Made by a program: the position numbers and the translations under genes
NCBI GenBank assembly: GCA_008501735.1
Contig: QQUF01000038.1
Span: 11,187-75,186 of the forward strand
DNA from: Calditrichota bacterium
Lineage (GTDB): Bacteria > CLD3
DNA length: 64,000 bases
Reading direction: 5' to 3'
The notes under the pieces: model-generated
Told to the model about the DNA's origin: nothing
Seen by the model: only the letters and a program-made list of their open reading frames with translations
Database searches by the model: none
In this document: piece after piece, positions 17,801 through 61,730 of the stretch
Layout: every line of letters begins with the position of its first letter
Position numbering within the stretch: the stretch's first letter is position 1

Positions 17801-20501
17801 TGTTGGAAGCGACACGGAAACAAACATCACTCCAACTTTCGGTTATTACTCATTTTTTGTAACAGGTCAAACTGTTTCTTACACTTTCCCGAGTGCAGGA
17901 ATTTACACCGTCGAAGTGCAAACGGATTTTCCGAATCAGTGGACAGAGTGCAACGAAAACAATAACACTTTTTCTGTTCAAGTTACGGTTGTTGACAAAA
18001 AGCCTGACTTGCGAATTCTTTCACAACACATTTCTCCAACCGAGTTAAATCCTGACGTGAATGAGCCGATTGGAATTTATCTTTCTTACGAAAACATCGG
18101 TGAAATCGCTTCTGACTCATTTTTTGTCCGTTGCCAAGTTGACGACATTCAGCTTGGAACAGACATTTTAGTTCCCGGACTTGCAGTTGGCGAAGACACA
18201 ACAATCGCCGTAAACGCAACTTGGAATTCAAGTAATGCAGGAGCTCACATAATTCGCGGATTTGTGGATTTCTTTAACACAGTTGCAGAGTCAAACGAAC
18301 TTAACAACGAAGCCTCACGAGCTGTGATTGTTGGGGAATCGCCGAATTTGAAGTTTACTTACTTGAATTTTAGTGACAACCTTCCCGAAATCGGCGACCA
18401 AATTACGATTAGTGCGGAAATTGTGAATGAAGGTGATTTGTCTTGCGATGCAGAGTTGATTTTTTCTTACCAAAATGATTTCGGAAACTTAGTTCCGATT
18501 GGAAATCAAACTGTAACAGTTCCGCAAAAAGACACTTTGCAAATTAGTTTTCAGTGGACTGTTCTTGATTCGGTAACAACGATTAACGGAAAAATTGTGA
18601 ATGCAAGTCCGCAAGAATTTAATCCTGATGACAACGAAATTAACGAGCAACTCGGACCTGTTCCTTTTGTCCAAATGAGCATTTCCAAAACGTCTTTTGC
18701 GAAAGATTTTACCACTGGAAGTGGAGCTTTTGTAGATACTTTGGTAATTTCAAATTCTGGAACTGAAACTTTGAGTTACACAATTTTTTCAGCCTCGAAT
18801 TTGATTAGCGAATCGAAAGGCTCGGGGAATGTGATTCCTTCTGGAACTGACACGGTTTTCGTAAGTCTTGGCAACGCTACAACCGATTTGGGAACTTACT
18901 ATGGAACAATCGTTGTGAATTCAAACGACTTGAACGCAAGCCAAACTTTGATTCCTGTAACCTTAAATTATCACGGTTCAAAAATCGCAGTTGACATTTT
19001 GGGCGTGAACTTCGGAACAGTTTTTAACGGAACGACAAACAGCGGACAAGTGAACATTTCTAATCTCGGAGATTTACCACTAACTGTAACTGGAATTGAT
19101 GTTTTACAAAATTCACTTTCGGTTGACACTTCTGCTTTTGTCATTCAGCCAAACGCAATTCAGACTGTAAACGTTTCGTGGAAACCTTTAGGAACTGAAT
19201 CTTTGCTTGAAGTTCTGACAATTCACAGTGATGATTTTAACGACTCATTGGTAACTTTTACGGCAATTGGAAATTCTGTTGAAGCGGCACATTTTTTCAG
19301 TTTCGACCACTTGACAACCTTGCCAAACAACTGGAATTCTAATGCAAGTGCAGGAAATCCTTGGCAGATTATGGACGAAGGAAACGGCGATAAATCCGTC
19401 CAAGCCGACGGAACAACAACGCTTGTTTCAAGCAAAAATAAAAATGGAAACCAAATTTTATCTTTGGTCGAAACAACTTTGGAAAGTCCAATTTATGATT
19501 TTACAAATTTCACAAATGTAAATTTAATGTTCTACCACAACTACATTTTGGGTTCTGAAATTTCTCCTGAAGGTGGTTTTGTTGAACTTTCGACTGACGG
19601 CGGAAACACTTTCCCGAACCAAATTGCTTACTACAATTCTTCGACTTCAGGGAATGAAGATTTCGACATTTCGAGTTTGGTTAGTGGGCAGAGTGGAGTG
19701 CAAGTGCGTTTTAACTACAAAGTTTCAAACGGCGTTTCGTGGACGGTTGACGACTTTTTTATTGGAGACACAACGACTTTGATAAATGTTCCTCCAACAC
19801 AAATCGACACTGTTTTGGTTCTCGGAACAACTCTGACAAGTTTTGAACTTGGTTGGACTCCTTCTTACGACGTGAATTTTGACAGTTACGAGATTTTTTA
19901 CGCTGAAACTTTCGACTTTGCGAATGCGGTAATTTGGACTGTTGCGGAAGATTCTTTGCTTTCGGATTACCAAACGAACAACACGGAAATTCTGAATGTT
20001 TTCCCACGAACTTATTGGGTAAAAATGCGAGGAATTGACAAACTCGGAAACGTTAGTGCTTTTACAAATCCAATTCGAGTTGAGATGGACGGATTAATTT
20101 CTGGCTTTGAAATTTCAACTGTTGGAAGCCAAATTCAACTTTCTTGGGACGAGCCAAATTTCGCAGAACTTTTAATTTCTGGTTACAATGTTTACCGAAG
20201 TGAAGAAGCGGATTTTATCCCAAGTTTATTGAATCAAGTTACAACGAATGTTACGGACAATGACCTTTTTGCACCAAAAATTCAGTGGAACGAAACAGCG
20301 ACACTTTCGGGAAGTGCTTACTTCTACTCCGTTACTGCAAACGGAACTGTGAGTTCGCCTGTTCTTAGTAATTCAGGTAATAAATTTGGGAAAAAAGGTT
20401 TCGTGAGTTCTTCGGCACAAAACCTTAGTAAGAAAATTGACCGAAGAAAAAGACAACTTGAAGTCAAAAAGATTTTAGAAAAAATGACAAGGCACAGATA
20501 A
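11880..20501 (+). CDS. Giant secreted multidomain repeat protein (2873 aa)
   Basis: This is a single open frame with a signal peptide (1-21). Domain order by residue: five 75-residue repeats carrying DPGFGNG and RAKDENGLWS (about 25-395); FN3 (396-480); a discoidin-like carbohydrate-binding module (485-645); four PKD-type domains (645-1023); a LamG/concanavalin-like domain (1029-1237); an unassigned segment (1238-1380); about seven CARDB-type Ig domains with E..NE.NN endings (1380-2260); two ASPM/Hydin-like Ig domains (2262-2465); a MAM-like segment (2467-2630); two FN3-like domains (2630-2830). The last residues are basic (SKKIDRRKRQ...MTRHR) and there is no YPNPFNP sorting domain, unlike the next gene. 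The likely role is adhesion or carbohydrate binding at the surface (inference). NNC codons (AAC, GAC, TTC) look commoner than in the gene at 20643. A terminator follows. Confidence 0.85.
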   Translation: MKKLLLLFTILGVAAQSLFSQNIDYVEFFIDTDPGFGNGTNIPITISDSVEVNYNVDLNGISNGMHILNIRAKDENGLWSIHAKKFFLKEAISFNTQITELEHFFDSDPGFGNGANVPIPSGDSVLVNYTADLSSLSNGLHTLNIRAKDENGLWSHHTKKTFIKESISSNSLITELEYFFDSDPGFGNGMNIPISSGDSVLVNYVVDLTPVSNGFHNLNVRAKDENGLWSLLTKKSFLKESAISNPQITKLEYFIDNDPGFGFATNVPIPISDDVTKSFVVDLNGISDGIHKIQVRAKDENGLWSHLNKRLFLKETSQTAKNITKLEYYYTKDSSKSNRINYSSFTPSTDVNLFLSTDLTNLDANTNYTLHVIGKDENNVPSHYFKHDFTTEIGTPSIDNPTELFATNITSDSLVLNWAGTSYEFEIHQNGATIYSGSETNFKVTNLAPNSTYNFSVFGKALGTNTVSQDSILLTFTTPDSGNIIGTYTILDPTECDANYCFHDETNTQLTDGISASTPFNANLGNGSAYEWVGWTTNSSPEIIFDFTNIHYFYQLTIGTYQSTTENIFIPDSLQISYSEDGVNFTFSETLPTISSFTEDSHNTISFSLSGKPVGRFAKINFIKNTPIGTTLVDEIIFNGFPYLLPTANFVASNPSANCGTSVTFDAQTSTSGSGFGISNYQWDFENDGIFDANGQTVIYPITALADTVHLKITNSDGIESEITKNFSWSYTASAPIADAGKNYQVVEGYSLTLNASATTDLNENCGTESLSYTWDLNGDGIFGEANGETPTVSWATLSALNYFPQVPFTISVKVTDQDNLTSTASTSLTIFKDSPIANLLANPSSVTCSGVLELDASATIHPNSQRTIVQYDWDFENDGTYDFTNSNPLVNTSYNAFGTYTAKVKVTDDNGSSDSTTTTILVNLGNTQPIANAGGSYSLNAFNDLVLDGTASFDADSTCGDSIVSYKWDLNNDGIFGDVTGKTPTVYWSLISSLSVPGTYPISLKVTDTLGGNSVASTTLAISPSAGTMACFDGSSRIEVPNLINNQTAFTIEAWFNFTDNNSTRWIYGTGSGFTDVGIAVSSTSNNLAYYGKTATSSFVDQLGSISLTAGSWNHIAFVFDGTNWTGYLNGVQDFQITESGTVTTVSTQAFGQGNWNSGEGFLGELDELRIWDSAQTQAQIQARMNLPLLGNESNLVAYYNLNQISGPTVNDVSANGNSGTFVGTECFVPSTTPLSGSTTFTNNNPTLSFVGIGGFANSIVEPDTGSSETTFQFAIDYFDSDGDFPAIGFPKLLLDFNGDGDFLDNEDLNFTMFEENPSDTTVTNGKRYIYFANGLAESSNWKTQVIAQDVKGGSSSTAFLTEPYISNDLLDISIFANDINFSSLNPQVGDTVTISATVHNNSDFNAENFVVSLYEEDTFVSSYTIPSLSYHSQTTISWQHVFSVDNFYPMKIVLDESNVLTEDNELNNFAIRPVLVGNYVIPGNIVVQNDGLSPSTVYPYSTVRVFGNAQYSGVFGSDFDVSGATVNFQIVETGASFSGNTNGNGDFGIYFTAPTPGTYTIVGTVTDYTLTGNFGPLALTVLPLASGPDLHCEINLNNYSPIVGNTVSGTATVTNSGVEAAGAFNFRIANCEGLIANHTISGLAPNSSQTFNFTSTFPNVGGCSVSGFADNTNIVSELVETNNSSSKGVNVLPDQPDLTPSNSQIYGSYLTGSTVNLSAKIQNIGGIGSGQFDVNVYDNGTLIHTESISALAAQSQTSFSFSNTFTTLGNHAISVKVDEPIGSGFVTEWNENNNVYTGSINVYQLPPVSPNLTISGLSVNPATPTNPGSLDLIATISNNGSDGISVGDSIELNFTVNENGNSTTYTVLDTLGFAKKSSKQLTFTIPTPVFGNNHLYASVDPNNLVSESNENDNLLDRPLCWDFYNGDIPNSNLFWEVSHFSGEEVNLSLGLYNNGLYTGSTVESRFFVDGNFVGSDTETNITPTFGYYSFFVTGQTVSYTFPSAGIYTVEVQTDFPNQWTECNENNNTFSVQVTVVDKKPDLRILSQHISPTELNPDVNEPIGIYLSYENIGEIASDSFFVRCQVDDIQLGTDILVPGLAVGEDTTIAVNATWNSSNAGAHIIRGFVDFFNTVAESNELNNEASRAVIVGESPNLKFTYLNFSDNLPEIGDQITISAEIVNEGDLSCDAELIFSYQNDFGNLVPIGNQTVTVPQKDTLQISFQWTVLDSVTTINGKIVNASPQEFNPDDNEINEQLGPVPFVQMSISKTSFAKDFTTGSGAFVDTLVISNSGTETLSYTIFSASNLISESKGSGNVIPSGTDTVFVSLGNATTDLGTYYGTIVVNSNDLNASQTLIPVTLNYHGSKIAVDILGVNFGTVFNGTTNSGQVNISNLGDLPLTVTGIDVLQNSLSVDTSAFVIQPNAIQTVNVSWKPLGTESLLEVLTIHSDDFNDSLVTFTAIGNSVEAAHFFSFDHLTTLPNNWNSNASAGNPWQIMDEGNGDKSVQADGTTTLVSSKNKNGNQILSLVETTLESPIYDFTNFTNVNLMFYHNYILGSEISPEGGFVELSTDGGNTFPNQIAYYNSSTSGNEDFDISSLVSGQSGVQVRFNYKVSNGVSWTVDDFFIGDTTTLINVPPTQIDTVLVLGTTLTSFELGWTPSYDVNFDSYEIFYAETFDFANAVIWTVAEDSLLSDYQTNNTEILNVFPRTYWVKMRGIDKLGNVSAFTNPIRVEMDGLISGFEISTVGSQIQLSWDEPNFAELLISGYNVYRSEEADFIPSLLNQVTTNVTDNDLFAPKIQWNETATLSGSAYFYSVTANGTVSSPVLSNSGNKFGKKGFVSSSAQNLSKKIDRRKRQLEVKKILEKMTRHR
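11955..13079 (+). repeat. Five tandem 225-bp coding repeats
   Basis: The phase-matched triplets around Leu/Val-Glu at 11955, 12180, 12405, 12630 and 12855 are spaced exactly 225 bp, giving 75-residue units. Units 2 and 3 are the closest in DNA sequence; unit 5 is degenerate and has lost the DPGFG motif. No indels are seen between units, which fits fold constraint. Confidence 0.85.
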
Positions 20502-45147: not shown

Positions 45148-46536
45148 ATGCTTCAATCAAAAGAACAAATAGAAATTTTGAAGAAAAATAGTAAAGATTT
45201 AGCTAACTACATTCAAACAAATTTGCAAAATAATCCGCAAATACTTTTTTTGTTAAAAAATCTTGGTAGATTACCAAATGATTTTGATGGCGAATGGCTT
45301 TATGGTTTGACTCAAAATGAGAATCCTAAAATTAGGTTTTGGGCAATTAAGAATATTGGAAAGTTGAAATCAAATGGTGATATTAAAATTCTAAAAAAAC
45401 TAATTCAGAATGAAACTGATACCGCTAATAGGAGGGAAATAATTTCTTCGATTGGAAGAAAAAGAAATTCTGTTTACAAATCATTATTGTTAGAAACTCT
45501 TGACGATAATGACCCCAAAGTTGTTTGCCAAGCAATTAGAGGGCTTTTAGTTTTTAAACTTGATGATGAAATTACAGAAAAATTAAAGGCACTTAGAAGT
45601 CATAAAAACGAGATGGTGCAAACTATAATTCGTAAAGAATTTTTTCAAGAAAAGACTTCTAAGAAAGAACTTCCACATAAAGAAACTTTTGATTATTTGA
45701 AAAATGTAGTTGTCAACGGAGATGTTTTAGAAGTTTTAAAATTAGTTCCAGAAGAAAGTGTTCATTTAACTTTTACTTCGCCACCTTATTATAATGCACG
45801 AGATTATTCGATTTATCAAAGCTATCAGGATTATTTAAATTTTTTAGAAGAAGTCTTTCTTGAGACTCATCGAGTTACTAAGGAAGGTCGTTTTCTTTTA
45901 GTGAATACTTCACCAATAATTATTCCAAGAATTAGTCGACAACATTCGAGTAAAAGGTATCCAATTCCTTTTGATTTACATCCTTTACTTGTAAAAATGG
46001 GTTGGGAATATATTGATGATATTATTTGGCAAAAGCCTGAAGCAAGTGTTAAAAATAGAAATGCAGGCTTTTTGCAACATAGAAAACCTTTGGGTTACAA
46101 ACCAAATGCAGTAACGGAAATGGTAATGGTTTACAGAAAGCAAACGGATAAACTTATTGACTGGAATATTAAACAGTATGATTTTGAAACTGTGAAAAGA
46201 AGCAAAGTTTCAGATGGTTATGAAACTTCTAACGTCTGGAAAATTGACCCGAAATTTGATAAAATTCATTCGGCAATTTTTCCAGTTGATTTGTGCCAAA
46301 AAATAATCAGTTACTACTCATTCGAAGGTGATTTGGTTTTTGACCCTTTTGCAGGAAGTGGAACTTTGGGAAGAACTGCAAAAGCATTAAATCGATTATT
46401 TTTCTTAACAGAAAAAGACGAAAAATATTTTAATTATATGAAATCAAAGAATAAATCTCAAACCTTGTTTGGTGAACCTGAAACAAGATTTTTTACTTTA
46501 AAAGAATTTGATAAGGAGAAAAATGACACTAACTGA
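45148..46536 (+). CDS. DNA (N4/N6)-methyltransferase with N-terminal HEAT-like repeats
   Basis: The 462-residue protein has HEAT-like helices at about 45-165 (repeated EWLYGLTQ, IKNIGKL, IRGLLVF patterns). The methyltransferase core follows, with catalytic motif IV TSPPYYN (210-216) before the SAM motif FAGSGT (401-406), the beta-class order. The (T/S)PPY motif is typical of N4-cytosine enzymes, so m4C is likelier than m6A. The next gene, overlapping by 14 nt, encodes a putative endonuclease, giving a type II restriction-modification pair. It sits directly after the VWA gene. Confidence 0.88.
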   Translation: MLQSKEQIEILKKNSKDLANYIQTNLQNNPQILFLLKNLGRLPNDFDGEWLYGLTQNENPKIRFWAIKNIGKLKSNGDIKILKKLIQNETDTANRREIISSIGRKRNSVYKSLLLETLDDNDPKVVCQAIRGLLVFKLDDEITEKLKALRSHKNEMVQTIIRKEFFQEKTSKKELPHKETFDYLKNVVVNGDVLEVLKLVPEESVHLTFTSPPYYNARDYSIYQSYQDYLNFLEEVFLETHRVTKEGRFLLVNTSPIIIPRISRQHSSKRYPIPFDLHPLLVKMGWEYIDDIIWQKPEASVKNRNAGFLQHRKPLGYKPNAVTEMVMVYRKQTDKLIDWNIKQYDFETVKRSKVSDGYETSNVWKIDPKFDKIHSAIFPVDLCQKIISYYSFEGDLVFDPFAGSGTLGRTAKALNRLFFLTEKDEKYFNYMKSKNKSQTLFGEPETRFFTLKEFDKEKNDTN

Positions 46537-47422
46537 ACAAGTAACCAAAAGAATAATTCGTAAATTAATCAAAGGTGAAGATTACAGAATAGAGATAGTA
46601 ACTTTGATTAATGCACAATTCCTACAGTACGTTATAGAGTTTTTTAAGCAAGTTGCAGAGGCTAAACTAAAAAATCAAAATATAACTGTTGATTGGTACA
46701 AGAAAGAGATGCTTTCATTAGATTTGTCGCCAGAAGAGATTGCAATTAATTCAGGTTTGAATAAGAAAACCATAACAAATATGTATAATTCTGGCACTAA
46801 AGAAATTGTAATCAACGCTTCATACGAACATTACGACACATTGTACAAAGCAATTGAAGATTTAACTCAAGTTGAAGACTTGAACCTTTCTTTAAGTATT
46901 AAATTCAATAAAGTTAGTATTGAACTTGATATTAATGAAAGTCTAATTGTCATTAACACATTAGCTGTAAAACGTGCAGCTTTAAGAGGCGGATTATGGA
47001 GTACTGCTGGTAAACAAGCAGAAGGACCTTTAATGCTAACTTTGTGCAAATTGTTTAAAGTCCCTAAAGAAAATTACACAGAAAAGTTAAAATCCAAAAA
47101 GGTAAAAAAAGGTAGTGTAAATCGTGAAGTTGACTTTTTCCTAAATACCGAAAAAGATGTTTTTAAATGTGAAGTAAAATTAATGGGAAAAGGTAATCCT
47201 GAAAGTGCAGATGCTGTAATTGCAAGAGATAGCAAAGTATTTGTAGCGGATAAACTTTCGGACCAAAACAAAGCTCAATTAGACGAACTTGGTGTTGAAT
47301 GGGTTGAACTAAGAGAAATTAATGGTTTCAAAAAATTCAAAACTGTCTTGGATAATTTAGAAATTCCAAATTCTGACTTTTGTGAAAATCTTGAATTGGA
47401 ATTAGATAGAATTTTAGCTTAA
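46523..47422 (+). CDS. Putative type II restriction endonuclease (CfrBI-like)
   Basis: The 299-residue protein resembles the CfrBI family of endonucleases by recollection of the N-terminal block (TLTEQVTKRIIRKLIKG, LINAQFLQYVIEF). The fold is supported by a PD-(D/E)xK pattern, D204 in REVDFF and E217-x-K219 in KCEVK. It pairs with the overlapping methyltransferase. CfrBI cuts CCWWGG; that specificity here is only a guess. The frame opens at TTG 46508, but AAGGAG (46513-46518) and ATG 46523 set the start, giving a 14-nt overlap. Confidence 0.7.
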   Translation: MTLTEQVTKRIIRKLIKGEDYRIEIVTLINAQFLQYVIEFFKQVAEAKLKNQNITVDWYKKEMLSLDLSPEEIAINSGLNKKTITNMYNSGTKEIVINASYEHYDTLYKAIEDLTQVEDLNLSLSIKFNKVSIELDINESLIVINTLAVKRAALRGGLWSTAGKQAEGPLMLTLCKLFKVPKENYTEKLKSKKVKKGSVNREVDFFLNTEKDVFKCEVKLMGKGNPESADAVIARDSKVFVADKLSDQNKAQLDELGVEWVELREINGFKKFKTVLDNLEIPNSDFCENLELELDRILA

Positions 47423-50792: not shown

Positions 50793-51764
50793 ATGCCGCT
50801 AATTCAAAACTCAACTTACAACCCCCCAAGATTTTTCTCAAATGGGCATTTACAAACGGTTTATCAAACGTTGTTTCGGAAAGTCGAAGGTGTAAAATAT
50901 CAAAGGGAAAGAATCGAAACACCAGACGGAGATTTTTTGGACTTAGATTGGTCATTGGTTGACTCCGAAAAATTAGTAATCTTAATTCACGGTTTGGAAG
51001 GAAGCTCGAATGCTGTTTACATCAAAGCAATGGTTAAAATTTTGAACAAAAATGGTTTTGACACTGTTTCGATGAATATGAGAGGTTGTAGCGGAGCGTC
51101 AAACAAACTCCTTCGAGCGTACCACAGTGGAGCGACAGAAGATTTAGAAACAGTCGTTTCTCACATTTTAAAAACGAAACCTCAGAAGAAAATTGGTATT
51201 GTGGGTTTTAGTCTTGGTGGAAATTTGACTTTAAAATATTTAGGTGAACAAGGGGAAAAAGTTGCTCCAAAAATTTGTGGAGCAGTAACTTTTTCAGTTC
51301 CTTGTGATTTATTAGGTTCTTCTTTTGAGCTAAAAAAGCCAAAGTGTAAAATGTACACAAAACGCTTTTTGATTAGACTTGGTAGAAAAATGAAAATCAA
51401 ATCAGAACAATTCCCAAATAAAATTGACTTTGAAAAAGTAAAAACTTTAAAAAATTTGAGTCAATTTGACGACTTCTTTACTGCACCTGTTCACGGGTTC
51501 AAAGACGCAGAAGATTACTACAAAAAATGTAGTTCAAAGCAGTTTTTACCTAAAATTCAAATTCCAACATTGCTTGTGAATGCTGACAATGATCCTTTCC
51601 TTAGTCAAAGTTGCTTTCCGATTGAGGAAGCAAAAGCTAATAAAAATTTTTCATTAGAAATTACCGATTCTGGAGGGCACGTTGGTTTTGTGAGTTTTTC
51701 TGAAAATGAATTTTGGTATGAAAAAAGAGCAGTGGAGTTTTTGAATTCTGTTATTGTAAATTAA
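50793..51764 (+). CDS. YheT-type alpha/beta hydrolase
   Basis: The 323-residue hydrolase belongs to the YheT/ABHD1-3 family. The nucleophile elbow is GFSLGGN; IHGLEGSS forms the oxyanion region, and the His near GGHVGFV completes the triad. Members act on esters or lipids, and natural substrates are poorly known. It begins 5 nt after glgA. Its last 14 nt overlap the end of the convergent gene at 51751, with no room for a terminator. Confidence 0.9.
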   Translation: MPLIQNSTYNPPRFFSNGHLQTVYQTLFRKVEGVKYQRERIETPDGDFLDLDWSLVDSEKLVILIHGLEGSSNAVYIKAMVKILNKNGFDTVSMNMRGCSGASNKLLRAYHSGATEDLETVVSHILKTKPQKKIGIVGFSLGGNLTLKYLGEQGEKVAPKICGAVTFSVPCDLLGSSFELKKPKCKMYTKRFLIRLGRKMKIKSEQFPNKIDFEKVKTLKNLSQFDDFFTAPVHGFKDAEDYYKKCSSKQFLPKIQIPTLLVNADNDPFLSQSCFPIEEAKANKNFSLEITDSGGHVGFVSFSENEFWYEKRAVEFLNSVIVN

Positions 51765-53841
51765 AACCATAAGTGTACCTAAAATTCATAAAAAGCTCAG
51801 TATAGTCTTTTTTCTTTCCTTGCGTATCGAAGTTTGATAAACCAAAAACTGTTTCAAAAATCATATTTGAAAAAAAAGAATATTTTGTTCTGAATTCTGT
51901 ACCGAACCTATTTGAGGATTCTGAATTTTGAGTTTTTGATGAAAAATCATTTTTGAGTTTCAAATTTAAATCCAAATTATAACTTTTTATTTTGTATCGA
52001 AAAGTGGTATCAATCGAGTTTTGTGTTTGCAAAGTTCCTAAAGATTTGGACTCAACGCTTAAATTTATATAACTCAAATTTACTATTAATGGGAAACTAA
52101 ATTGCTCGGTTAATGTAAATCCAATTGCTCTAGAAGAGTTTTCGCTAGAAGGATTAATATTGTCACTTCTTTCATTATTCGAGAAATTGAAATTTATTCC
52201 GTGTCTCAAATTAAATGCTTGAAAGTTATAATTAACACCAAAGTTGAAAGTTGAAATAGAGTCGTCACTTTCACGTAAACCAAGACTGTCTTGTTCACTT
52301 TTACGTTTTTGGTTTCTAAGCATCAAACTAAAGCTTGGTAAATCTATCCTAGGGAAAATGAGTAAATTTCCAGATATTACTTTTGTATTACGTGAAGTTA
52401 TTTGGTTGTTGGATAAATTGTCATCATAATTTTCAAAACTTAATGAGGTAGTAATTTTTCGATTCAAAATTGAGAATCTGTCTTTTAGTAAATAGCCTTT
52501 TCTATCATTTCGCAGAAAATCATTTCCAAAGGAGTTATAGGAAGTTCCTATTCTTTTATATTCAGCAGTAATTAGATTAGTTAGGAATTGAATTTTCCCT
52601 CGACCAAAGTAAGCTGTTGAAGAACCTTCGTAAATTCTTACTGGGTAAGTACTAATGTTTATTGTAAAAAAGTCTTCGTATTCTTTTGGGTCAAAAGGAA
52701 GTGTTTCATCAAATAAAGAGTCAACATCTGCCTTAGAAATTGCTCCGTTTGAGATGTCATTAGTTGTGATTGAAATTGCAACACCGCTTTCAAACCTTAA
52801 AAAGTTGTTGTTCTTCTTAAATTCTAAAGTTAAGTCGCTCCCAACAACAATATTTTCTTTAGGTGAATCACCATTTTTAATTGAAGAAGTATCATCTTTT
52901 GCCTTGAAAAAAGTAATTCCAAATTCATTTTTATTTTCAGTTCCAAATGCTAATCTTCCTGAAGTAATGTTTCTTTGGAAGCTTCCGCCGACTACGTAAG
53001 TTGAATCATCTCGCAAATTTGCAGGAGGAAATCCTGTTGTTGGGTCATACTCAAGAACCTCTCCTTCGATTCCCCTTTGGATTTCTCCTTTTGTAAATTC
53101 AAAGGATACTTTTTTATAACGAATTTTTGCGTCAAATCCCCTGACTCTTGTACCGCTTAATACTAAATCATCTAAAGAAACATTTGTATCTCCAAAGTAA
53201 AGTTCAAAGTAATCTGAAACCAAACCTACTTGAAAACGATTTCTTGGTTGGGCATTTTGGCTTTCTTCACTTGTTGTAAAAATGCGGATTGGGATTTGGA
53301 AGTTTTTATACTCTGCCAAGCCTATAAAATTAAAATTGTTTATTGAAGAAGGCTCTTGACGTAATTCAGAACCTCTTCCTCTAATACTTCCAGAACGAGA
53401 ATTTATGTCAGTTTTTCCATTTATAGTCAAACCATTTAACCAATATTTTGTTGGTAAAGAAGCAATCTTACTCATTCCTCCTGCAAATCCTTTTACTTCA
53501 AAACTCCAAATCATTGTCTCAATCTCTTTGCCTTCTAAATTTTTAGCTACGATAATTACTCGATGTTTTCCAGAAATTAGTGGTTCAAGATAAACGAAAG
53601 AAACATTTTTGTTTTGAATCTTTGATTTATCAGTAATTTCTTTGTCATCTATAAAAATTTTTGTTAGAGAAGAACTAAGGTTTTCTCCATTATTTAAATT
53701 TGCTGTGAAGAAAAACTCTCCAGATTTTACAATTTTTGTTTGAGGTGATATAATTGCCCAATCTGAGCTTTGAGCAAAAATTTTCTGTAAAAAAAGCAAA
53801 GAAATGACAAAGGGTATTAGAATTTTATAAGAGTTTTTCAT
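51751..53841 (-). CDS. Exported protein with Ig-like domain and predicted outer-membrane barrel
   Basis: The 696-residue protein has a signal peptide (about 1-24). An Ig-like domain (about 25-125; WAIISPQTKIVKSGEFFF, IWSFEVKG) follows, then a long beta-rich part of alternating residues from about 195 to the end (AFGTENKNEFGITFF, RFGTEFRTKYSF). The last residues (NFRYTYGFNLQ) resemble a barrel but lack a terminal Phe. The frame opens at TTG 53856; the signal peptide fits ATG 53841. It is the last gene of the four-gene run from 60048, and a passenger or anchor role for the other three is plausible but unproven. Confidence 0.65.
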   Translation of the reverse strand: MKNSYKILIPFVISLLFLQKIFAQSSDWAIISPQTKIVKSGEFFFTANLNNGENLSSSLTKIFIDDKEITDKSKIQNKNVSFVYLEPLISGKHRVIIVAKNLEGKEIETMIWSFEVKGFAGGMSKIASLPTKYWLNGLTINGKTDINSRSGSIRGRGSELRQEPSSINNFNFIGLAEYKNFQIPIRIFTTSEESQNAQPRNRFQVGLVSDYFELYFGDTNVSLDDLVLSGTRVRGFDAKIRYKKVSFEFTKGEIQRGIEGEVLEYDPTTGFPPANLRDDSTYVVGGSFQRNITSGRLAFGTENKNEFGITFFKAKDDTSSIKNGDSPKENIVVGSDLTLEFKKNNNFLRFESGVAISITTNDISNGAISKADVDSLFDETLPFDPKEYEDFFTINISTYPVRIYEGSSTAYFGRGKIQFLTNLITAEYKRIGTSYNSFGNDFLRNDRKGYLLKDRFSILNRKITTSLSFENYDDNLSNNQITSRNTKVISGNLLIFPRIDLPSFSLMLRNQKRKSEQDSLGLRESDDSISTFNFGVNYNFQAFNLRHGINFNFSNNERSDNINPSSENSSRAIGFTLTEQFSFPLIVNLSYINLSVESKSLGTLQTQNSIDTTFRYKIKSYNLDLNLKLKNDFSSKTQNSESSNRFGTEFRTKYSFFSNMIFETVFGLSNFDTQGKKKDYTELFMNFRYTYGFNLQ

Positions 53842-53941
53842 AACTTCAAATCCCAAATTTGTAGAAAAAGTTAAAATGAACCTTTAGGTTTAGGCATTTA
53901 AGAGCTAACAGTTTGTCAAAACTCATTAACTCTTTTAAAGG

Positions 53942-55735
53942 CTATTTTTTCTTTTTAGCTTTAAGTTTTACAGCTTTCGATTTCTTACTCTTAACATCAA
54001 ATTGGCTTATTGCTTCTATTTGAAAGTTGTAGATTTCCCCATATCTTAAAGAATCTGAAACCCAAACCCTAGATTCTTTTCCTAAAGTATTCGAGTCAGC
54101 GACAAGTTTGTCATTTTGGTAAATTTGGAATCCTTTTAAATCTTGAATCTCTTTGTAATCCCAATTTAAAGTTACACGATTGCTGTCAACTTTGAATGGC
54201 CAAATCGAAATGTTTGGCATTTTTTGAGTTGGGACTAAAACTTCAATTGTTTCTGAAAGTTCACTTTCCAAACCATTTTTAGATTCACCAACAATTCTAA
54301 ATTTCCAAACTGCAGATTTTAGATTTTTTACTTCGTAAAGGTAAGAGTTAATTTTAATTAATGGAATACTCGCATCTTTTAGAATTTCTTCACTTGAAGG
54401 TCTGCTTGAATAAATTGAATAACCATTTGTAACTTTATCACTCGGAGATTTTGTGTTCCAATTTAAATCAATGAAATTTTTGCCATTTTTGTTAATCCAT
54501 TTTCCTTGTAAACCTGTTGGAGTTGGAGGGATTTGTAAATCTGTGTAAATCAAAACCTTTTCCCCACTGAAAGTTGTGTAATCATTTTTTACAGCAATTA
54601 CTCGGTAAGAATAAGTTTGTCCTTCAAGTTTTGAATGATTATCAAAAAACACTCTTTCATTAGGACTTATCAAATTTGAAATGGATTCAAGTTTATAAAT
54701 TGAATCCAAAAAAGCCCTTTGAACGTGAAAACCATCAATTTCTTTTTCCAAAGACTTATCAAATTTCCAATCAATTTTAACTTGAACTGAAGGGTTATAA
54801 ACTTGTTGAATACTTATGATTTCGGGAGGTTTGATTTCAATAGGTTTCAAAGTTGGGTCAAAAACCACAGTTGTTTTCTTTCCCTCATTTCCGAAAAAAT
54901 CCACAGGAGCAATTCCATAAGTGTAAATTGTATTCTTTTCAATTTCTTCATCTAAAAAGAAAACTTCGACATCAACTTGAGAGTAATCACGAATTATGTT
55001 TTTACTGATTTTTTTGAATTCGCTCCCTCTTTTTTTACGGTAAATCTCGAATCCAGCAAGTTCTAAATCTTTAAATTTGGTTCGACTGTAATTCCAAAGA
55101 ATTTGTAATTCTTTAGGCTCGATAGTTTTAGAAGTTCTTGCTGTAATTTCAAGCCCAAAATCAACTTTTGAACTTTTAGAGAATCTAAAAGTTGAAATTG
55201 GATTATTCGCCTCTTTCCCATTATTAACAGGAAATAAGCCATAAGTGAATGAACTCGCTTTAGGTAATTTTCTGTCAATTAATCCAAAACCTTCCATCAA
55301 AGCATAATCATAATCGTATCCGAATGAACCTTGAATACTTAAGAGTGCTTTTTTATCTTTGGTAATTATTGCTAAGTATTCCTCAGTAGATGCAGGAATT
55401 ATTTGCTCACTTGCAATTAAAGTTTGGATTTTATTTTGTAGTCTTGCAATTTCATTTGTGTCTTTTTCAACATTGCTAAAATCTTTGTTCGCATTTATTT
55501 CAGGAGAAATTACAGTTTGGTTTAATTTAATCCAATCAGAGTTTCCAACTTTTCTCTTGATATTAAAACCGTCAAGATTTGTCGACCAATTGTTGACTTG
55601 CCAAAGAAGTTTTACAAAATTGTCGTTACCAGAGCCACTTAAAGTTGCAAATTTATTTTGTCCAAGAATTTGGTTAGAAAAAAATACTATTAGGATTAAA
55701 GTAAAGATTTGAAAAAAATTATTTTTTAAAGACAT
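53942..55735 (-). CDS. Exported fibronectin type III repeat protein
   Basis: The 597-residue protein has a signal peptide (1-25) and about five FN3-like domains. Repeating cues are ...W.....L.GF.I.RK (NLDGFNIKRKVGNSDW), LAGFEIYRKKRGSEFKK, IDGFHVQRAFLDS, TNGYSIYSSRPSS and LKGFQIYQNDKL, each with an ...Y.I.AV... strand. A short helical stretch lies near 95-115. The end is basic (KLKAKKKK) without a sorting domain. The gap to the previous gene is 15 nt; it probably works as a surface or periplasmic binding protein with its neighbours. Confidence 0.75.
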   Translation of the reverse strand: MSLKNNFFQIFTLILIVFFSNQILGQNKFATLSGSGNDNFVKLLWQVNNWSTNLDGFNIKRKVGNSDWIKLNQTVISPEINANKDFSNVEKDTNEIARLQNKIQTLIASEQIIPASTEEYLAIITKDKKALLSIQGSFGYDYDYALMEGFGLIDRKLPKASSFTYGLFPVNNGKEANNPISTFRFSKSSKVDFGLEITARTSKTIEPKELQILWNYSRTKFKDLELAGFEIYRKKRGSEFKKISKNIIRDYSQVDVEVFFLDEEIEKNTIYTYGIAPVDFFGNEGKKTTVVFDPTLKPIEIKPPEIISIQQVYNPSVQVKIDWKFDKSLEKEIDGFHVQRAFLDSIYKLESISNLISPNERVFFDNHSKLEGQTYSYRVIAVKNDYTTFSGEKVLIYTDLQIPPTPTGLQGKWINKNGKNFIDLNWNTKSPSDKVTNGYSIYSSRPSSEEILKDASIPLIKINSYLYEVKNLKSAVWKFRIVGESKNGLESELSETIEVLVPTQKMPNISIWPFKVDSNRVTLNWDYKEIQDLKGFQIYQNDKLVADSNTLGKESRVWVSDSLRYGEIYNFQIEAISQFDVKSKKSKAVKLKAKKKK

Positions 55736-55750
55736 TATTTTTCTCCAAAA

Positions 55751-58588
55751 TTAAAATGTAAGGTCAACGTCAACGTCGCCAGAGTAGCTTTGGTAGTTAA
55801 AAGTTAAATTTCCATGTAACCAACCGTTTCCATTGTAGGTTCCGACTGTTAATCTTCCATTTGCAGAAAGTCCGTGCAATCTGTAAATGTGCAATGGAAT
55901 TTTTATATCCATTCGACCTGAAGCGTAGATTGAAACTGATATAGAGCCGTTTAAACCTGTTTGTTTTAAATTTGCTCGCACTTGTGCAGAAAGAAGAATT
56001 CTATAAGAACCCTTAAATCCAAATCCTGCCCAATCATCACTCCAATCTGCTGTCCAATAGGTTTCTGGATTAAATCCAGTTGGGTAAGTTGCGGAGTCAC
56101 TCCAATTTGCAGAAGCCAAACCACTAATTGTTCCATTCATTCTTGAACTAGTACTTAAGCGACCATAAATATCAATTGCCCCATTACTCATTACAATTTT
56201 GTCGAATATTTTTCCGCCCATATTTTGGCCTTTTGCACGCCACCATCCTTGATAAATCCAAAAATCAACATTTAAATTATCGGTTTGAACAACTGACCCA
56301 CTACTAGGAACTACAATATTTGTAGAAACAGAACCATAAATTTGTTCAGCTGGTAAAGAATAATTTACATTCAAATCTCCTGAAACGAAGGTATTGTTTT
56401 TTAGAGATGCAAAATTTCCATTTAATGTTAAGACAATGTTATTTCCAATTTCAATAATTATTTCACCTCCAACTTCACAAATGTCTGCTATATCTGCAAT
56501 TTTAATTCCAACACCGACAAAGTATTGCCCTTCTTGTGGAGTAGAAGCTGCTAAACTATAATTAAAACCGACTTTCCCAGAAAGTTCCGTAATTTTCAGC
56601 CCTGAGTTTCCTAGTGGAATATTTGTACCAATAGCTAAAGCAAGTGAACCGTAAACAAAATCAGTTTCAACACCGATTAAAATGCTTCCAGAAATACTTA
56701 TTTTGTTTGCGAAGTCTCCTGAAAAATTACCATTAAAACTATTTGAAGTGAATGTTGCATCAAAATGAACTTTTACTGGAGTTTTGTTGTAATCAGCTTC
56801 AATTTTTCCAACTGTAATTGAACCTCCTTGTGAGATTTCAAATTTATCAACAGCTACTCTTGCACCACCTTGACCAACAAAGTCAATTTTTACTTCTGCA
56901 CTTAAAGACAGTTTGCTATTTGCATAACTTGCATCTGAAAGAGTAAAAGTGAAGGCTTTATACTTTACATTCCCACTTGCATTAAATTCTTTTAGTTCAC
57001 CGTTTTCAATCTTAAAAGGATTTACTTCAATTTTTACATCAAATTGATTATGCTTTGCTTTTAAATCACCTTCAATAGTAGTTATATCAAAATTTTCATC
57101 AAAATCGACAGTTAGGCCAAGTTCGTCTAAAGTCATTGAAAAGGCAGTAATATTTGAGGCTGAAATACTTGCTTGACAGTTTCCGCTACTAAAAGCTAAT
57201 CCAAGAGTAAATTCTCCTGTTATTCCTTGCATATTTTTTAAGTCAACTGATCCGTTTCCATCAGTAATTTCAAAATCCCCACTGATTGAGAAGATTACTC
57301 CTAAAGATAAATCATTCATCATAACTGTAAACCCACCAGTGTTGTAAGTTGCTCCACCAACTGCTGTGAATGTTCCTGAGAAACTTCCGTCACTTCCAAG
57401 ACTACCATTATTAACTTTTGCGATTGTTGTTCCCGCTTTGACAATTTCGATGTTGATATTAGAAACTCCACCAAAATCAAAATCTCCATTCCAGTCATTT
57501 CCACCACTAAAAGTAAAATTTACACTTCCAGTAACACCTCTTTTGACAATTGCTAAACCCCCAAGTATATTTTTATCTTGGTTTAGGTTAACATTGAGTC
57601 CAACTGTTCCGTTTAAGTTTCCAGAATTGTCAACTGTAAGAGAAACAGAAGTTGCTTTGAGGCTTAAAAAATTAATATCTGCGATAGCTTTGTTCCCATT
57701 CCAAGAAATTGTTACGTCTTTAAACTCACCAGTTTGGCAATTTTTCTTAAATGAAACATTTGCTTGAGTGAGATTTGCTCCTCTTTCTACAACGCCTTTC
57801 ATTGTTAGTCCAAAAGAAGCATTTGTTGCATTATAGCTACAAAACCCATCAGAATCAGGAGAGTCGAAATCAGGAGGGGAAGAAAAGTTTAAAGAAATTG
57901 GACCAAAAGTTTCACCTGTTTCAATTATATCACATTTACAATCATTTACTTTAACGACTCCGTTTGCAGTGTAAGAAACTCCTTCGATCGTGAATTTGCA
58001 AGAAATCGGCTCTACTTTTGCCGTTGAGTCAACAACTGTTACTTCAACAGTTCTTTGGTCAATATTTGTCAAAGTTATTCTGTTGCTTGAAGTCGTCCAC
58101 TCATAACTCCCACCATTTGAAGGGAAAGTTGTTGAAGTAATTGAAACTGTTCCCATTTGGTCAACTAATGTCGTGTCAGGAATTTGGCATTTTATGCTAT
58201 AAATTGTAAAATCTATTGTTTGTTGCCCAACTTTTGTAGTATCGAACCCTTCACCAAAGTAATGCAAATTATAATCTCCGATAATACTTGCACTTTCAGT
58301 GTTTCCAGCCGTTGGACCACCAGTTGCTGAAACTGTTCCTGTCCAACTTTTTGTTTCATTTGGACCCATCGAAAATTCGGGTGGATTGACAGAAATTGAG
58401 ATTGAACCTGATGTGGAAAGAGTTACTGAGCCTTCTTCGTGTGCATCAGAAGTGTAACTTCCATTTCCTGTCCACGAACTTGTTTCTCCTGTTTGAGAAC
58501 TATAATAAAGAGGTGATTGGGAAAAAGAATTATTTGTTAATAATAAACAGGAGAGAATGAGAGCGAAATTTAAAAGTATTTTTTGCAT
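55751..58588 (-). CDS. Large exported beta-rich repeat protein, unknown function
   Basis: The 945-residue protein has a signal peptide (about 1-23). A pair of Ig-like regions at about 30-215 is followed by a long array of strand-like segments (for example GSVNFTFSGGNDWNGDFDFG, ISGSILIGVETDFVYGSL, GLKITELSGKVGFNYSLA). It ends with GDVDVDLTF, a terminal Phe. No domain is recognised; a beta-solenoid or a TamB-like lipid groove would give this pattern, but this is a guess. The frame can open at 58594, but AGGAG is only 1 nt from it and 7 nt from ATG 58588, so that is preferred. It follows the 485-residue gene by 2 nt. Confidence 0.7.
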   Translation of the reverse strand: MQKILLNFALILSCLLLTNNSFSQSPLYYSSQTGETSSWTGNGSYTSDAHEEGSVTLSTSGSISISVNPPEFSMGPNETKSWTGTVSATGGPTAGNTESASIIGDYNLHYFGEGFDTTKVGQQTIDFTIYSIKCQIPDTTLVDQMGTVSITSTTFPSNGGSYEWTTSSNRITLTNIDQRTVEVTVVDSTAKVEPISCKFTIEGVSYTANGVVKVNDCKCDIIETGETFGPISLNFSSPPDFDSPDSDGFCSYNATNASFGLTMKGVVERGANLTQANVSFKKNCQTGEFKDVTISWNGNKAIADINFLSLKATSVSLTVDNSGNLNGTVGLNVNLNQDKNILGGLAIVKRGVTGSVNFTFSGGNDWNGDFDFGGVSNINIEIVKAGTTIAKVNNGSLGSDGSFSGTFTAVGGATYNTGGFTVMMNDLSLGVIFSISGDFEITDGNGSVDLKNMQGITGEFTLGLAFSSGNCQASISASNITAFSMTLDELGLTVDFDENFDITTIEGDLKAKHNQFDVKIEVNPFKIENGELKEFNASGNVKYKAFTFTLSDASYANSKLSLSAEVKIDFVGQGGARVAVDKFEISQGGSITVGKIEADYNKTPVKVHFDATFTSNSFNGNFSGDFANKISISGSILIGVETDFVYGSLALAIGTNIPLGNSGLKITELSGKVGFNYSLAASTPQEGQYFVGVGIKIADIADICEVGGEIIIEIGNNIVLTLNGNFASLKNNTFVSGDLNVNYSLPAEQIYGSVSTNIVVPSSGSVVQTDNLNVDFWIYQGWWRAKGQNMGGKIFDKIVMSNGAIDIYGRLSTSSRMNGTISGLASANWSDSATYPTGFNPETYWTADWSDDWAGFGFKGSYRILLSAQVRANLKQTGLNGSISVSIYASGRMDIKIPLHIYRLHGLSANGRLTVGTYNGNGWLHGNLTFNYQSYSGDVDVDLTF

Positions 58589-58590
58589 TT

Positions 58591-60048
58591 TCATTCTCCT
58601 GAATTAGAGTTTTTAGGTATTCCAAAAACTTGCTCAAGCAAATTTTTAACATTTAGTGATGTTCCTTCCCACCTTAAAGTTACAGTCGCGAAATCTTGGA
58701 TTTCACCGTACTTAGCAACGATTGCAATACTCTTTGGTCGATAAGCAGCAATGAAAAGACCATTTTCATTAATTGTTCCAGCATCAGAAGGAATGACCTT
58801 CCACTCGGGCTTAATGTTAATTAATTCATCATTTTTATCATATCCTAGAGCTGTAAATAGAAAAGTACTTCCAGTATTTAGCTCAATCTCTTCAGGCAGA
58901 ATTTCAATACTTTTTAGAGCGATTCCGCCACTACCTGTTTCAGAATCTGAGCTTGTTTTTAATGTAAACCAAAAGACTTCACTACTCAAAATCTGCTCAC
59001 CTTGACTTGTAGAGATGTGTGCAAAAATTTGCCAAGCGTAAGTTTTACCAGCTTTAAGTTCTTCAGCAAAATTTGGATAGAGAAAAGAAGTGTTTGATAA
59101 CTCCTTTTGTTCAAAAATAGGTGTGTTTTCAGTAATTAATTTTGCAGAGGTTTGTCCCTCAGTAACTGGGTAAACAATCAAATCGTATGAGGTTGCTTTT
59201 GCAAACCATTGGAAAAATGGATTTGGGTTGTAGATTTCTTCGGGTTTCTGACTAATTGCATTCCCAGGAGCAATTACTTCTAATTCGGTTGTAGGATTTG
59301 TTGTTGTATTACTACCATCATCTTTGGCAACATTTTTTCCATTTTGGTCTTTTATTACAATGTCAATTATGTAATTATCAGGTGGTAAAATTCCAGTTGC
59401 AAGTGCGTCGTAAAGTAAATCTTCTCCATTTGGCGTTGAAAAGAAATCATCAAAATCTCTGTTTGTAAAACTTATAACTTGATTTGGTGCAACAGTCCCA
59501 AAATCTTTTATTCCTGTTACTAAACTTCCGTGTTTTTCAGAATTGAAGACTAAGTCTGCCTTTAATTTTCTTTCCAAATTATCATTTGTCAAAGTTGCAG
59601 TAAAAAGTAATGGTGCAGAAGAAATATTACTTGGGTCAAAATTAGAAATGTAAAGGACATTGACAGGAATCATATCAACTTGAAGGTCAACTCCTGAACT
59701 TGTCGGCTCAATGACCTCAAAAATATTTTGTGCAGAAGCAATCTCATTATTTGTTGTTATACTTAAATCTCTTGAACCAAGATTTGAACTTGCATCAATT
59801 GAAACTCTCGCAATAGCAGTTACACTACTTGAAATATTTAAACTTTCAATTGTTATCCCTTCACCAAAGCTTGCCGTAGAAATTCCATTGACAAAATTTG
59901 TGTTGCTACCACTGATTATCATATCTAGTGTTTCACCTTGTTCACCTGAGTTCGGAACAACGCTAATAATTTGTTGACTCAAAAGAACTTTTGGTAAAAA
60001 GGCTAAAATTAGGAAAGTCGAAAGTAATGACTTTATTATAAGGTTCAT
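58591..60048 (-). CDS. Exported protein with IPT/TIG-like and BIG2-like domains
   Basis: The 485-residue protein has a signal peptide (1-24). An IPT/TIG-like domain follows at about 26-112 (SVVPNSGEQGETLDMIISG). A beta-rich region (about 119-262) holds a conserved-looking TATLTNDNLERKLKADLVF stretch, then an FN3-like region (about 265-362; PNPFFQWFAKATSYDLIVYP, YAWQIFAH). A BIG2-like domain lies at about 377-459 (IEILPEEIELNTGSTFLFTA). GGGAG precedes ATG 60048. It is the first of four cotranscribed genes encoding exported proteins and overlaps none of them. Confidence 0.75.
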   Translation of the reverse strand: MNLIIKSLLSTFLILAFLPKVLLSQQIISVVPNSGEQGETLDMIISGSNTNFVNGISTASFGEGITIESLNISSSVTAIARVSIDASSNLGSRDLSITTNNEIASAQNIFEVIEPTSSGVDLQVDMIPVNVLYISNFDPSNISSAPLLFTATLTNDNLERKLKADLVFNSEKHGSLVTGIKDFGTVAPNQVISFTNRDFDDFFSTPNGEDLLYDALATGILPPDNYIIDIVIKDQNGKNVAKDDGSNTTTNPTTELEVIAPGNAISQKPEEIYNPNPFFQWFAKATSYDLIVYPVTEGQTSAKLITENTPIFEQKELSNTSFLYPNFAEELKAGKTYAWQIFAHISTSQGEQILSSEVFWFTLKTSSDSETGSGGIALKSIEILPEEIELNTGSTFLFTALGYDKNDELINIKPEWKVIPSDAGTINENGLFIAAYRPKSIAIVAKYGEIQDFATVTLRWEGTSLNVKNLLEQVFGIPKNSNSGE

Positions 60049-60694: not shown

Positions 60695-60727
60695 AAAGGC
60701 TGAATTTCAATTAGAAATTCAGCCTTT
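60695..60727 (-). terminator. Intrinsic terminator after the repeat-lipoprotein gene
   Basis: A perfect 14-bp stem, AAAGGCTGAATTTC (60695-60708) with GAAATTCAGCCTTT (60714-60727), is followed on the minus strand by a T-run. It lies 4 nt after the stop at 60732. Confidence 0.9.
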
Positions 60728-60731
60728 AAAG

Positions 60732-61730
60732 TTATTTTTTCTTTAAATCATTAATGCTGAAAGTTTCAACAGTTCCGTCAGGAAAAGTTTTTGTAGCCAA
60801 TTCGTCGCAAGTCCCATCTCCGTAATCTATTGTTGCAATTACAACTCCATCTTTTAAAAATTGAATTGTTCCTGATACAGGATAATCACAGTTTGCATCT
60901 TTAATTATCGGATTGACAATCACTTTTTCAAAACCATCTTTTTCATTTTTATCATTAATGCTGAAAGTTTCAACAGTTCCGTTAGGAAAAGTTTTTGTAG
61001 CCCATTCGTCGCAAGTTCCATCTCCGTAATCAATCGTTGCCACAAGTGTTCTTCTGTTTTCGTAAATTTCAATAGTACCTGAAACGATGTAATCGCAACC
61101 ATCAATTTTTACTAATTCTTTAGTAACAACGCGACGAAAATTATCATTTTTATCTTTTTCATATTTATTGCTTTTTCTATGTTTTCTACGCCATTCATCT
61201 AAATCAATAATTTTGTATTCGCCGTCAGAACCAATAATTTCTGCCAAATTATCACAAGTTCCATCACCAAAATTTATTGAAAATTCTAACACACCGTTTT
61301 GGTAAAAATTAATTAATCCTGAAACAGGATAATCGCAATCATCAGTTGTTACAATCGGTTCAATAATAACTTTCTCAAATTTCGAATCTCTGTCATCTCG
61401 ATGCCTAAGTCGTAATTCAGTGCTTTTTCCGTCTTTACTAATCATTGCAATTTCATCATTCTCACCATTTCCAAAATCTACTTCCGCTTCTACTTTTCCA
61501 TACATTTTATACTCAATTACACCAGAACTGTAAATCTCTCCTGAATTTGAGGTTAATTCTTTGGAGATATTTTTTTCAAAACCAGAAGCAGAAAAGTGAA
61601 TGTTTGATTCTTCTGTAAAAGAGGCTTCGTTGAAAGTTTCTAAAGAATCAGAATCATTATTTTCACAAGATGCAAAAATGAACATTGAACTTACTGCTGT
61701 TAAGGCTAAGATTTTGAGTGAAGATTGCAT
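60732..61730 (-). CDS. Repeat lipoprotein with CDYPVSG/GDGTCD units
   Basis: The 332-residue protein has a signal ending in FASC (C22), a plausible lipobox for lipid anchoring. It then has four tandem units of about 70-80 residues centred on positions 86, 155, 236 and 304. Units 2-4 share CDYPVSG (or CDYIVSG) followed about 20 residues later by YGDGTCDE and a FPDGTVETF-like end; unit 1 lacks the Cys pair (FGNGENDE). The two Cys per unit could form a disulfide. The last two units are similar in DNA, suggesting recent duplication. Function is unknown. It is in its own unit with a terminator, and an ECF sigma remnant follows. Confidence 0.75.
   Translation of the reverse strand: MQSSLKILALTAVSSMFIFASCENNDSDSLETFNEASFTEESNIHFSASGFEKNISKELTSNSGEIYSSGVIEYKMYGKVEAEVDFGNGENDEIAMISKDGKSTELRLRHRDDRDSKFEKVIIEPIVTTDDCDYPVSGLINFYQNGVLEFSINFGDGTCDNLAEIIGSDGEYKIIDLDEWRRKHRKSNKYEKDKNDNFRRVVTKELVKIDGCDYIVSGTIEIYENRRTLVATIDYGDGTCDEWATKTFPNGTVETFSINDKNEKDGFEKVIVNPIIKDANCDYPVSGTIQFLKDGVVIATIDYGDGTCDELATKTFPDGTVETFSINDLKKK

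What the first reader, a model, noticed from the sequence alone, without database searches (positions are those of the whole stretch)
51751..60048. Four-gene operon of large exported proteins that may form an unknown surface system
Four adjacent minus-strand genes (gaps of 2, 15 and about 100 nt) encode an IPT/BIG2 protein, a 945-residue beta-rich protein ending in Phe, an FN3 repeat protein and an Ig-plus-barrel protein. All have signal peptides; none has a YPNPFNP sorting domain. A barrel anchor with three partners could be a new surface assembly, adhesin complex or export device. I recognise no described system with this set.
Basis: partly seen in the sequence, partly recalled or inferred. 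Interest (0 to 1): 0.65.

Follow-up and report, generated by a model that had tools for sequence, protein, structure and literature searches.

The report
TANFOR-like surface operon with dedicated barrel
Four neighbouring genes encode an outer-membrane barrel and three exported partners; the same gene set accompanies a known class of bacterial warfare toxins (TANFOR) in other bacteria, but here it carries no recognisable toxin, and the barrel had gone unnoticed.

Summary
In detail: four tight minus-strand genes encode exported proteins without T9SS sorting tails. A contains an undescribed two-domain core ('p1') between IPT-like and BIG2-like ends. D is an Ig domain plus a predicted 26-strand barrel. 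C is a full-length homolog of FN3 proteins found beside D-type barrels in Bacteroidota. B is an orphan, only weakly similar to a large beta-rich protein of those loci.

Searching with the TANFOR toxin model alone gave ten Bacteroidota loci: nine carry a D-type barrel, ten a C-type FN3 protein, six or seven a B-type protein; twenty control regions had none. A locus from another, tiny phylum has the window's gene order with A and B fused. Related p1 and barrel genes recur elsewhere as p1-FecR-barrel-CHASE2 operons, for which I found no description.

So this is a conserved surface module of the TANFOR kind, without a toxin, mixing partners of two lineages. Most likely D anchors or exports A/B/C; that step is inferred. 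New variant of a known kind, with partners not reported for TANFOR loci.

The parts
58591..60048 (-). Gene A, 485 aa: signal peptide, IPT-like domain, p1 core, BIG2-like domain; no toxin domain and no sorting tail
   Evidence: p1 profile without A matches residues 116-387 at E 9.9e-44
58888..59703 (-). p1 core of A (residues ~116-387): the family that in Bacteroidota forms the N-terminal part of TANFOR-like toxins and elsewhere precedes FecR and barrel genes
   Evidence: FecR-type p1 profile E 2.4e-40; toxin-type N-terminus profile E 4.9e-8 over residues 186-362; alignment
55751..58594 (-). Gene B, 947 aa, beta-rich exported protein ending in Phe; orphan by sequence, in the position of the large B-type protein of related loci
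   Evidence: no match in 60 genomes, plasmids or PDB; weak colinear similarity to B-type proteins
56522..56818 (-). Part of B (residues 593-691) giving the weak match to residues 813-922 of the L045 fused protein
   Evidence: BLASTP E 0.028 in a 12-protein set; Smith-Waterman z 3.9-5.3
53942..55735 (-). Gene C, 597 aa FN3 protein, full-length colinear homolog of the FN3 proteins beside D-type barrels
   Evidence: profile without C matches residues 10-595 at E 1.4e-27 with filters off
51751..53841 (-). Gene D, 696 aa outer-membrane barrel protein with N-terminal Ig-like domain (an upstream TTG at 53856 would add 5 aa)
   Evidence: profile of FecR-type barrels E 4e-126; of Bacteroidota and L045 barrels E 1.1e-17; model
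53491..53757 (-). Ig-like domain of D (residues 29-117), predicted periplasmic
   Evidence: AlphaFold2 model; location inferred from the even strand number
51754..53430 (-). Predicted 26-strand barrel of D (residues 138-696)
   Evidence: DSSP strands on the model; family motif QPRNR...GD...L.L.G.RVRG
60695..60727 (.). 14-pair hairpin between the upstream lipoprotein-like gene (60732-61730) and gene A; likely boundary of the unit
   Evidence: consensus scan only

Best explanation
A-D form a conserved cell-envelope module of the TANFOR kind. D sits in the outer membrane as a large (about 26-strand) barrel with a periplasmic Ig domain. A (p1/TANFOR-like core), B (large beta-rich body) and C (FN3 rod) are exported by Sec to the periplasm and then shown on the surface by binding to D or passing through it. 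In Bacteroidota the p1 domain leads polymorphic toxins, so the module presents or delivers the toxin. Here A ends in a BIG2-like domain with no toxin or immunity gene, so the module more likely displays an adhesin or surface layer. Shown: the gene set, homology of A, C and D, and co-occurrence across phyla. Inferred: direct contact, surface location, D as anchor or pore, and the adhesive role.
For: Ten Bacteroidota loci found with the TANFOR model alone: a C-type FN3 protein in 10 of 10, a D-type barrel in 9 of 10 and a B-type protein in 6-7 of 10, within about 20 kb. Twenty control regions (365 kb) had none. L045, from another phylum, has p1+B fused - FN3 - barrel, the window's order; p1+B are also fused in G640. 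Persicobacter, Emticicia, Runella and Bergeyella plasmids carry barrel and p1 proteins with FN3 or B-type proteins, and three of the four show recognised toxin parts (PT-HINT; WHH nuclease next to SMI1/KNR4; deaminase). Leave-one-out profiles: A 9.9e-44, C 1.4e-27, D 4e-126.
Against: B's homology is not significant on its own (profile E 0.47, hhalign E 0.027). The window barrel belongs to the FecR/CHASE2 group, not the toxin/FN3 group. The closest held relative lacks C and a second barrel. The D model fits no solved structure well (best TM 0.46-0.48). Nothing shows that A-C reach the surface; C ends in lysines and could be periplasmic.
Confidence: 0.5

Rival explanations
1. A-C (or their TANFOR relatives) are exported by the type IX secretion system through an unrecognised signal, and D is only a cognate anchor, as SprF is for SprB and PorP for PG1035.
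For: TANFOR authors proposed T9SS export (PMC7073777). PorP-like barrels anchor type B CTD proteins (PMC9143113). Persicobacter has a PorP/SprF-OmpA gene next to its barrel. The window genome has T9SS-tail proteins.
Against: A, B and C have no CTD and D has no PorP_SprF match. A PF11751 search of 126 genomes including the window's own gave no match, but no control rang either, so that is not evidence of absence.
Confidence: 0.25
2. The operon is a sensory side branch of the p1-FecR-barrel-CHASE2 systems: barrel, Ig domain and p1 report an outside signal to an inner-membrane CHASE2 protein encoded elsewhere.
For: A and D are closest to the FecR/CHASE2-type families. 23 loci have p1-FecR-barrel, 17 of them with an adjacent CHASE2 gene. 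The genome has a separate p1-FecR-barrel operon (L019) and two unlinked CHASE2 proteins. FecR and CHASE2 are also paired in a Burkholderia biofilm operon (PMC5192318).
Against: FecR and CHASE2 genes are absent next to A-D; B and C are not part of those operons.
Confidence: 0.15
3. A-D is a decayed or disguised polymorphic-toxin locus: the toxin tip was lost, or B or A carries an unrecognised one.
For: The same gene set carries toxins in Bacteroidota.
Against: All four frames are intact; A ends in a BIG2-like domain, B is beta-rich to its last residue, no immunity-like gene follows, and the own genome has no TANFOR match at E<=10.
Confidence: 0.07

Closest known systems
TANFOR-class polymorphic toxin loci of Bacteroidota (TIGR02542; PMC7073777)
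   Same: p1/TANFOR-like exported protein near a C-type FN3 protein; D-type barrel in 9 of 10 such loci and B-type protein in 6-7
   Different: Window A is a remote relative (no TIGR02542 match); no toxin, immunity gene or SprB/CTD neighbour; the barrel and B-type protein were not reported in the parts of the paper I read
p1-FecR-barrel-CHASE2(-adenylate cyclase) operons in KSB1, Neomarinimicrobiota, Ignavibacteriota, Calditrichota, Cloacimonadota and others (no description found)
   Same: p1 and Ig+barrel proteins are of the same kind; window D falls in this group
   Different: No FecR or CHASE2 in the window operon; B and C in their place; IPT-like and BIG2-like ends added to p1
PorP/SprF-type barrels that anchor type B CTD proteins (PMC9143113)
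   Same: Outer-membrane barrel encoded with a large exported protein
   Different: D has no PF11751 match, has an N-terminal Ig domain, and its partners have no CTD
Usher pores (FimD/PapC) and MtrB
   Same: Large barrels; best Foldseek matches to D
   Different: TM-scores 0.2-0.48 and 9-11% identity, generic large-barrel similarity; no chaperone or pilin family matched in A-C

Membership tests
TANFOR-class polymorphic toxins | N-terminal TANFOR domain (TIGR02542) | tested here: not met
   No match in own genome at E<=10 or in A. Remote kinship only: toxin-type N-terminus profile E 4.9e-8; all TANFOR hits match the p1 profile at 1e-18 to 1e-45.
TANFOR-class polymorphic toxins | C-terminal toxin domain, often with an immunity gene downstream | tested here: not met
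   No toxin family in A or B; the gene after D is a convergent hydrolase
TANFOR-class polymorphic toxins | FN3 (COG3401-type) neighbour | tested here: met
   C, E 1.4e-27 to the FN3 proteins of such loci
TANFOR-class polymorphic toxins | SprB or T9SS-CTD neighbours | tested here: not met
   None beside the operon; the CTD proteins found in the window are about 30 kb or more away; not every window protein was scanned
T9SS substrates | C-terminal sorting domain (Por_Secre_tail, CHU_C) | tested here: not met
   No match in A-D at E<=1
PorP/SprF barrels | PF11751 match | tested here: not met
   D has no match
p1-FecR-barrel-CHASE2 operons | p1 protein | tested here: met
   A, E 2.4e-40
p1-FecR-barrel-CHASE2 operons | Ig+barrel protein of this group | tested here: met
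   D, E 4e-126; tree split with SH-aLRT 95
p1-FecR-barrel-CHASE2 operons | FecR and CHASE2 genes in the operon | tested here: not met
   CHASE2 genes lie on other contigs
Chaperone-usher systems | Usher, chaperone and pilin genes | tested here: not met
   No Pfam match in A-D; D only resembles usher pores as a large barrel
Any surface display system | Proteins located at the cell surface and in contact with each other | not testable with these tools
   Needs fractionation, pull-downs or complex prediction

The most novel reading that the evidence does not exclude
D-type barrels are the dedicated outer-membrane pore of an undescribed export route for p1/TANFOR-class proteins, independent of the T9SS. 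The same pore family has been re-used in at least three ways: toxin delivery (Bacteroidota), toxin-free surface display (this window and L045), and envelope signalling with FecR and CHASE2.
Probability: 0.22. Interest if true: 0.85.

Novelty: new variant of a known kind. Interest (0 to 1): 0.62.

Why it matters
How TANFOR-class toxins cross the outer membrane is open; T9SS export was proposed from neighbourhood statistics. A barrel and partner proteins that recur in their loci give a concrete rival to test by single-gene deletion. The window operon and L045 show the module also exists without a recognised toxin. The shared barrel and p1 link it to FecR/CHASE2/adenylate-cyclase operons in many phyla, for which I found no description.

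Tried and rejected
(1) B's structure: AlphaFold2 on the single sequence gave pLDDT 35, unusable. (2) B by sequence: no hit in 60 genomes, plasmids or PDB; a sub-threshold YhdP match (E 0.027) was not followed. (3) B as proven homolog of B-type proteins: profile E 0.47 ranked first but not significant, hhalign E 0.027 with probability 1.8%; kept as weak. (4) D as usher or MtrB: TM below 0.5, rejected. (5) A as a TANFOR protein in the strict sense: no TIGR02542 match. (6) Recent local duplication of the genome's own p1-FecR-barrel operon (L019): D is not closest to that paralog. (7) Foreign island by GC: operon 31-35% against 30-41% in the window, no signal. (8) Default HMMER filters missed C; it was found with filters off. 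(9) A search with L045's B region over 386 genomes found only itself. (10) PF11751 to locate Bacteroidota genomes: nothing rang.

Full report
Observation. A, B and C have good ribosome sites; all four start with a Sec-type signal sequence. None has a T9SS sorting tail, while other window proteins do. Upstream, 683 nt with a 14-pair hairpin separate A from a lipoprotein-like gene; downstream D meets a convergent gene. GC is ordinary.

What each protein is. A search with D found relatives in many genomes. Their neighbourhoods showed a recurring set: a ~360-aa exported protein without any Pfam family (here 'p1'), a FecR-domain protein, an Ig+barrel protein and a CHASE2 protein with or without an adenylate cyclase domain. 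Profiles built without the window give A E 9.9e-44, D E 4e-126 and C E 1.4e-27 with filters off. D's AlphaFold2 model (14 sequences, mean pLDDT 79.3, pTM 0.63) has an Ig-like domain at 29-117 and 26 strands at 138-695. Foldseek finds only generic large barrels: MtrB first (TM 0.46-0.48), then ushers; there is no PDB relative by sequence. B is an orphan.

The gene set elsewhere. D led to Bacteroidales loci with an FN3 protein, homologous to C, beside a shorter D-type barrel. A profile of C then led to L045, from a phylum with four held genomes: a 1632-aa protein with p1 at its start and a large beta-rich body, then FN3, then barrel. This is the window's order with A and B fused. L045's body and B align in colinear position but weakly (BLASTP E 0.028 in a 12-protein set; z 3.9-5.3 against shuffles). 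Bacteroidota plasmids then gave Persicobacter (barrel, B-type, FN3, p1 toxin with PT-HINT), Emticicia (barrel, p1 toxin with WHH nuclease, SMI1/KNR4 gene), Runella (barrel, p1+large, FN3, PKD, T9SS-tail protein) and Bergeyella (all types, many broken frames, deaminase domains).

Link to TANFOR. p1 N-termini of Bergeyella and Persicobacter gave sub-threshold, near full-length matches to TIGR02542 (E 0.054 and 0.14), and a Bacteroidales genome had one at E 8.6e-7 on the same contig as its FN3-barrel genes. TANFOR proteins are polymorphic toxins with FN3, SprB, PKD and T9SS-CTD neighbours, proposed to use T9SS (PMC7073777). I then ran the converse test: TIGR02542 alone against 396 Bacteroidota genomes gave ten genomes, none over the curated cut-off. 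In their neighbourhoods C-type FN3 is present in 10 of 10, D-type barrel in 9 of 10 (not G598) and B-type in 6-7 of 10; in G640 p1 and B are one protein, as in L045. All their TANFOR proteins match the p1 profile (1e-18 to 1e-45). Twenty other Bacteroidota regions (365 kb, 294 ORFs) had no hit to any of the profiles. The profiles were built partly from other Bacteroidota loci; of the ten genomes only G389 contributed rows to them.

Where the window fits. In a barrel tree the FN3/toxin barrels form one group and the FecR/CHASE2 barrels another; window D lies with the latter, on a long branch. A too is much closer to FecR-type p1 (2.4e-40) than to toxin-type N-termini (4.9e-8). C is of the FN3/toxin-locus kind. 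The operon thus combines partners from both. The genome also has a separate p1-FecR-barrel operon (L019, shared with its closest held relative G001, L018) and two unlinked CHASE2 genes. G001 has no C homolog and only one barrel, so A-D are not core to the family.

Mechanism. The simplest account is that D is the outer-membrane anchor or pore and A/B/C its exported clients, with p1 as the part that recognises the barrel: p1 is the partner common to the toxin, toxin-free and signalling versions. PorP-like barrels anchoring type B CTD proteins (PMC9143113) are a precedent for anchoring by a barrel; D is not of that family. Whether export is through D or through T9SS is undecided. In the signalling version FecR and CHASE2 would relay to the cytoplasm, and FecR-CHASE2 pairing is also known from a Burkholderia biofilm operon (PMC5192318).

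Limits. B's kinship is unproven. The parts of PMC7073777 I read do not mention a barrel; its supplements were not available. No tool here tests surface location or contacts. The window's phylum is not named; only about nine of its genomes appear in the searches.

Noticed in passing
L016, L020, L026, L028-L033, L035, L080-L090, L092, L094: A widespread operon, p1-FecR-Ig/barrel-CHASE2 (some with a guanylate/adenylate cyclase domain), in 23 loci from several phyla; I found no description. It looks like an outer-membrane-to-cytoplasm signalling chain.
   Followed up: partly
L019 6093-10323 and L018 7083-11265: The window genome and its closest held relative share a p1-FecR-barrel operon in conserved surroundings, without an adjacent CHASE2 gene.
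   Followed up: partly
window 60732-61730: Lipoprotein-like protein of repeated units (CDYPVSGTI...IDYGDGTCDE), with 102-nt direct repeats 91% alike.
   Followed up: no
window 45148-47422: DNA methylase with N-terminal HEAT repeats, overlapped by a CfrBI-type restriction endonuclease: a restriction-modification pair.
   Followed up: no
window 11880-20501: 2873-aa protein with six CARDB, PKD, laminin-G, fn3 and HYDIN-like domains.
   Followed up: no
L099 10393-12258: p1 protein with a PQQ/BamB-type beta-propeller, next to a barrel and a convergent CHASE2 gene and without FecR: yet another version of the module.
   Followed up: no
L084 14679-20000: 1774-aa protein with two C-type FN3 stretches, divergent from a p1-FecR-barrel operon: another link between the two versions.
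   Followed up: no
L024 4956-7418 and L025 11533-14016: A CHAT-domain TPR protein (L024) and its close homolog (L025) just upstream of the barrel gene in two genomes of the window's class.
   Followed up: no
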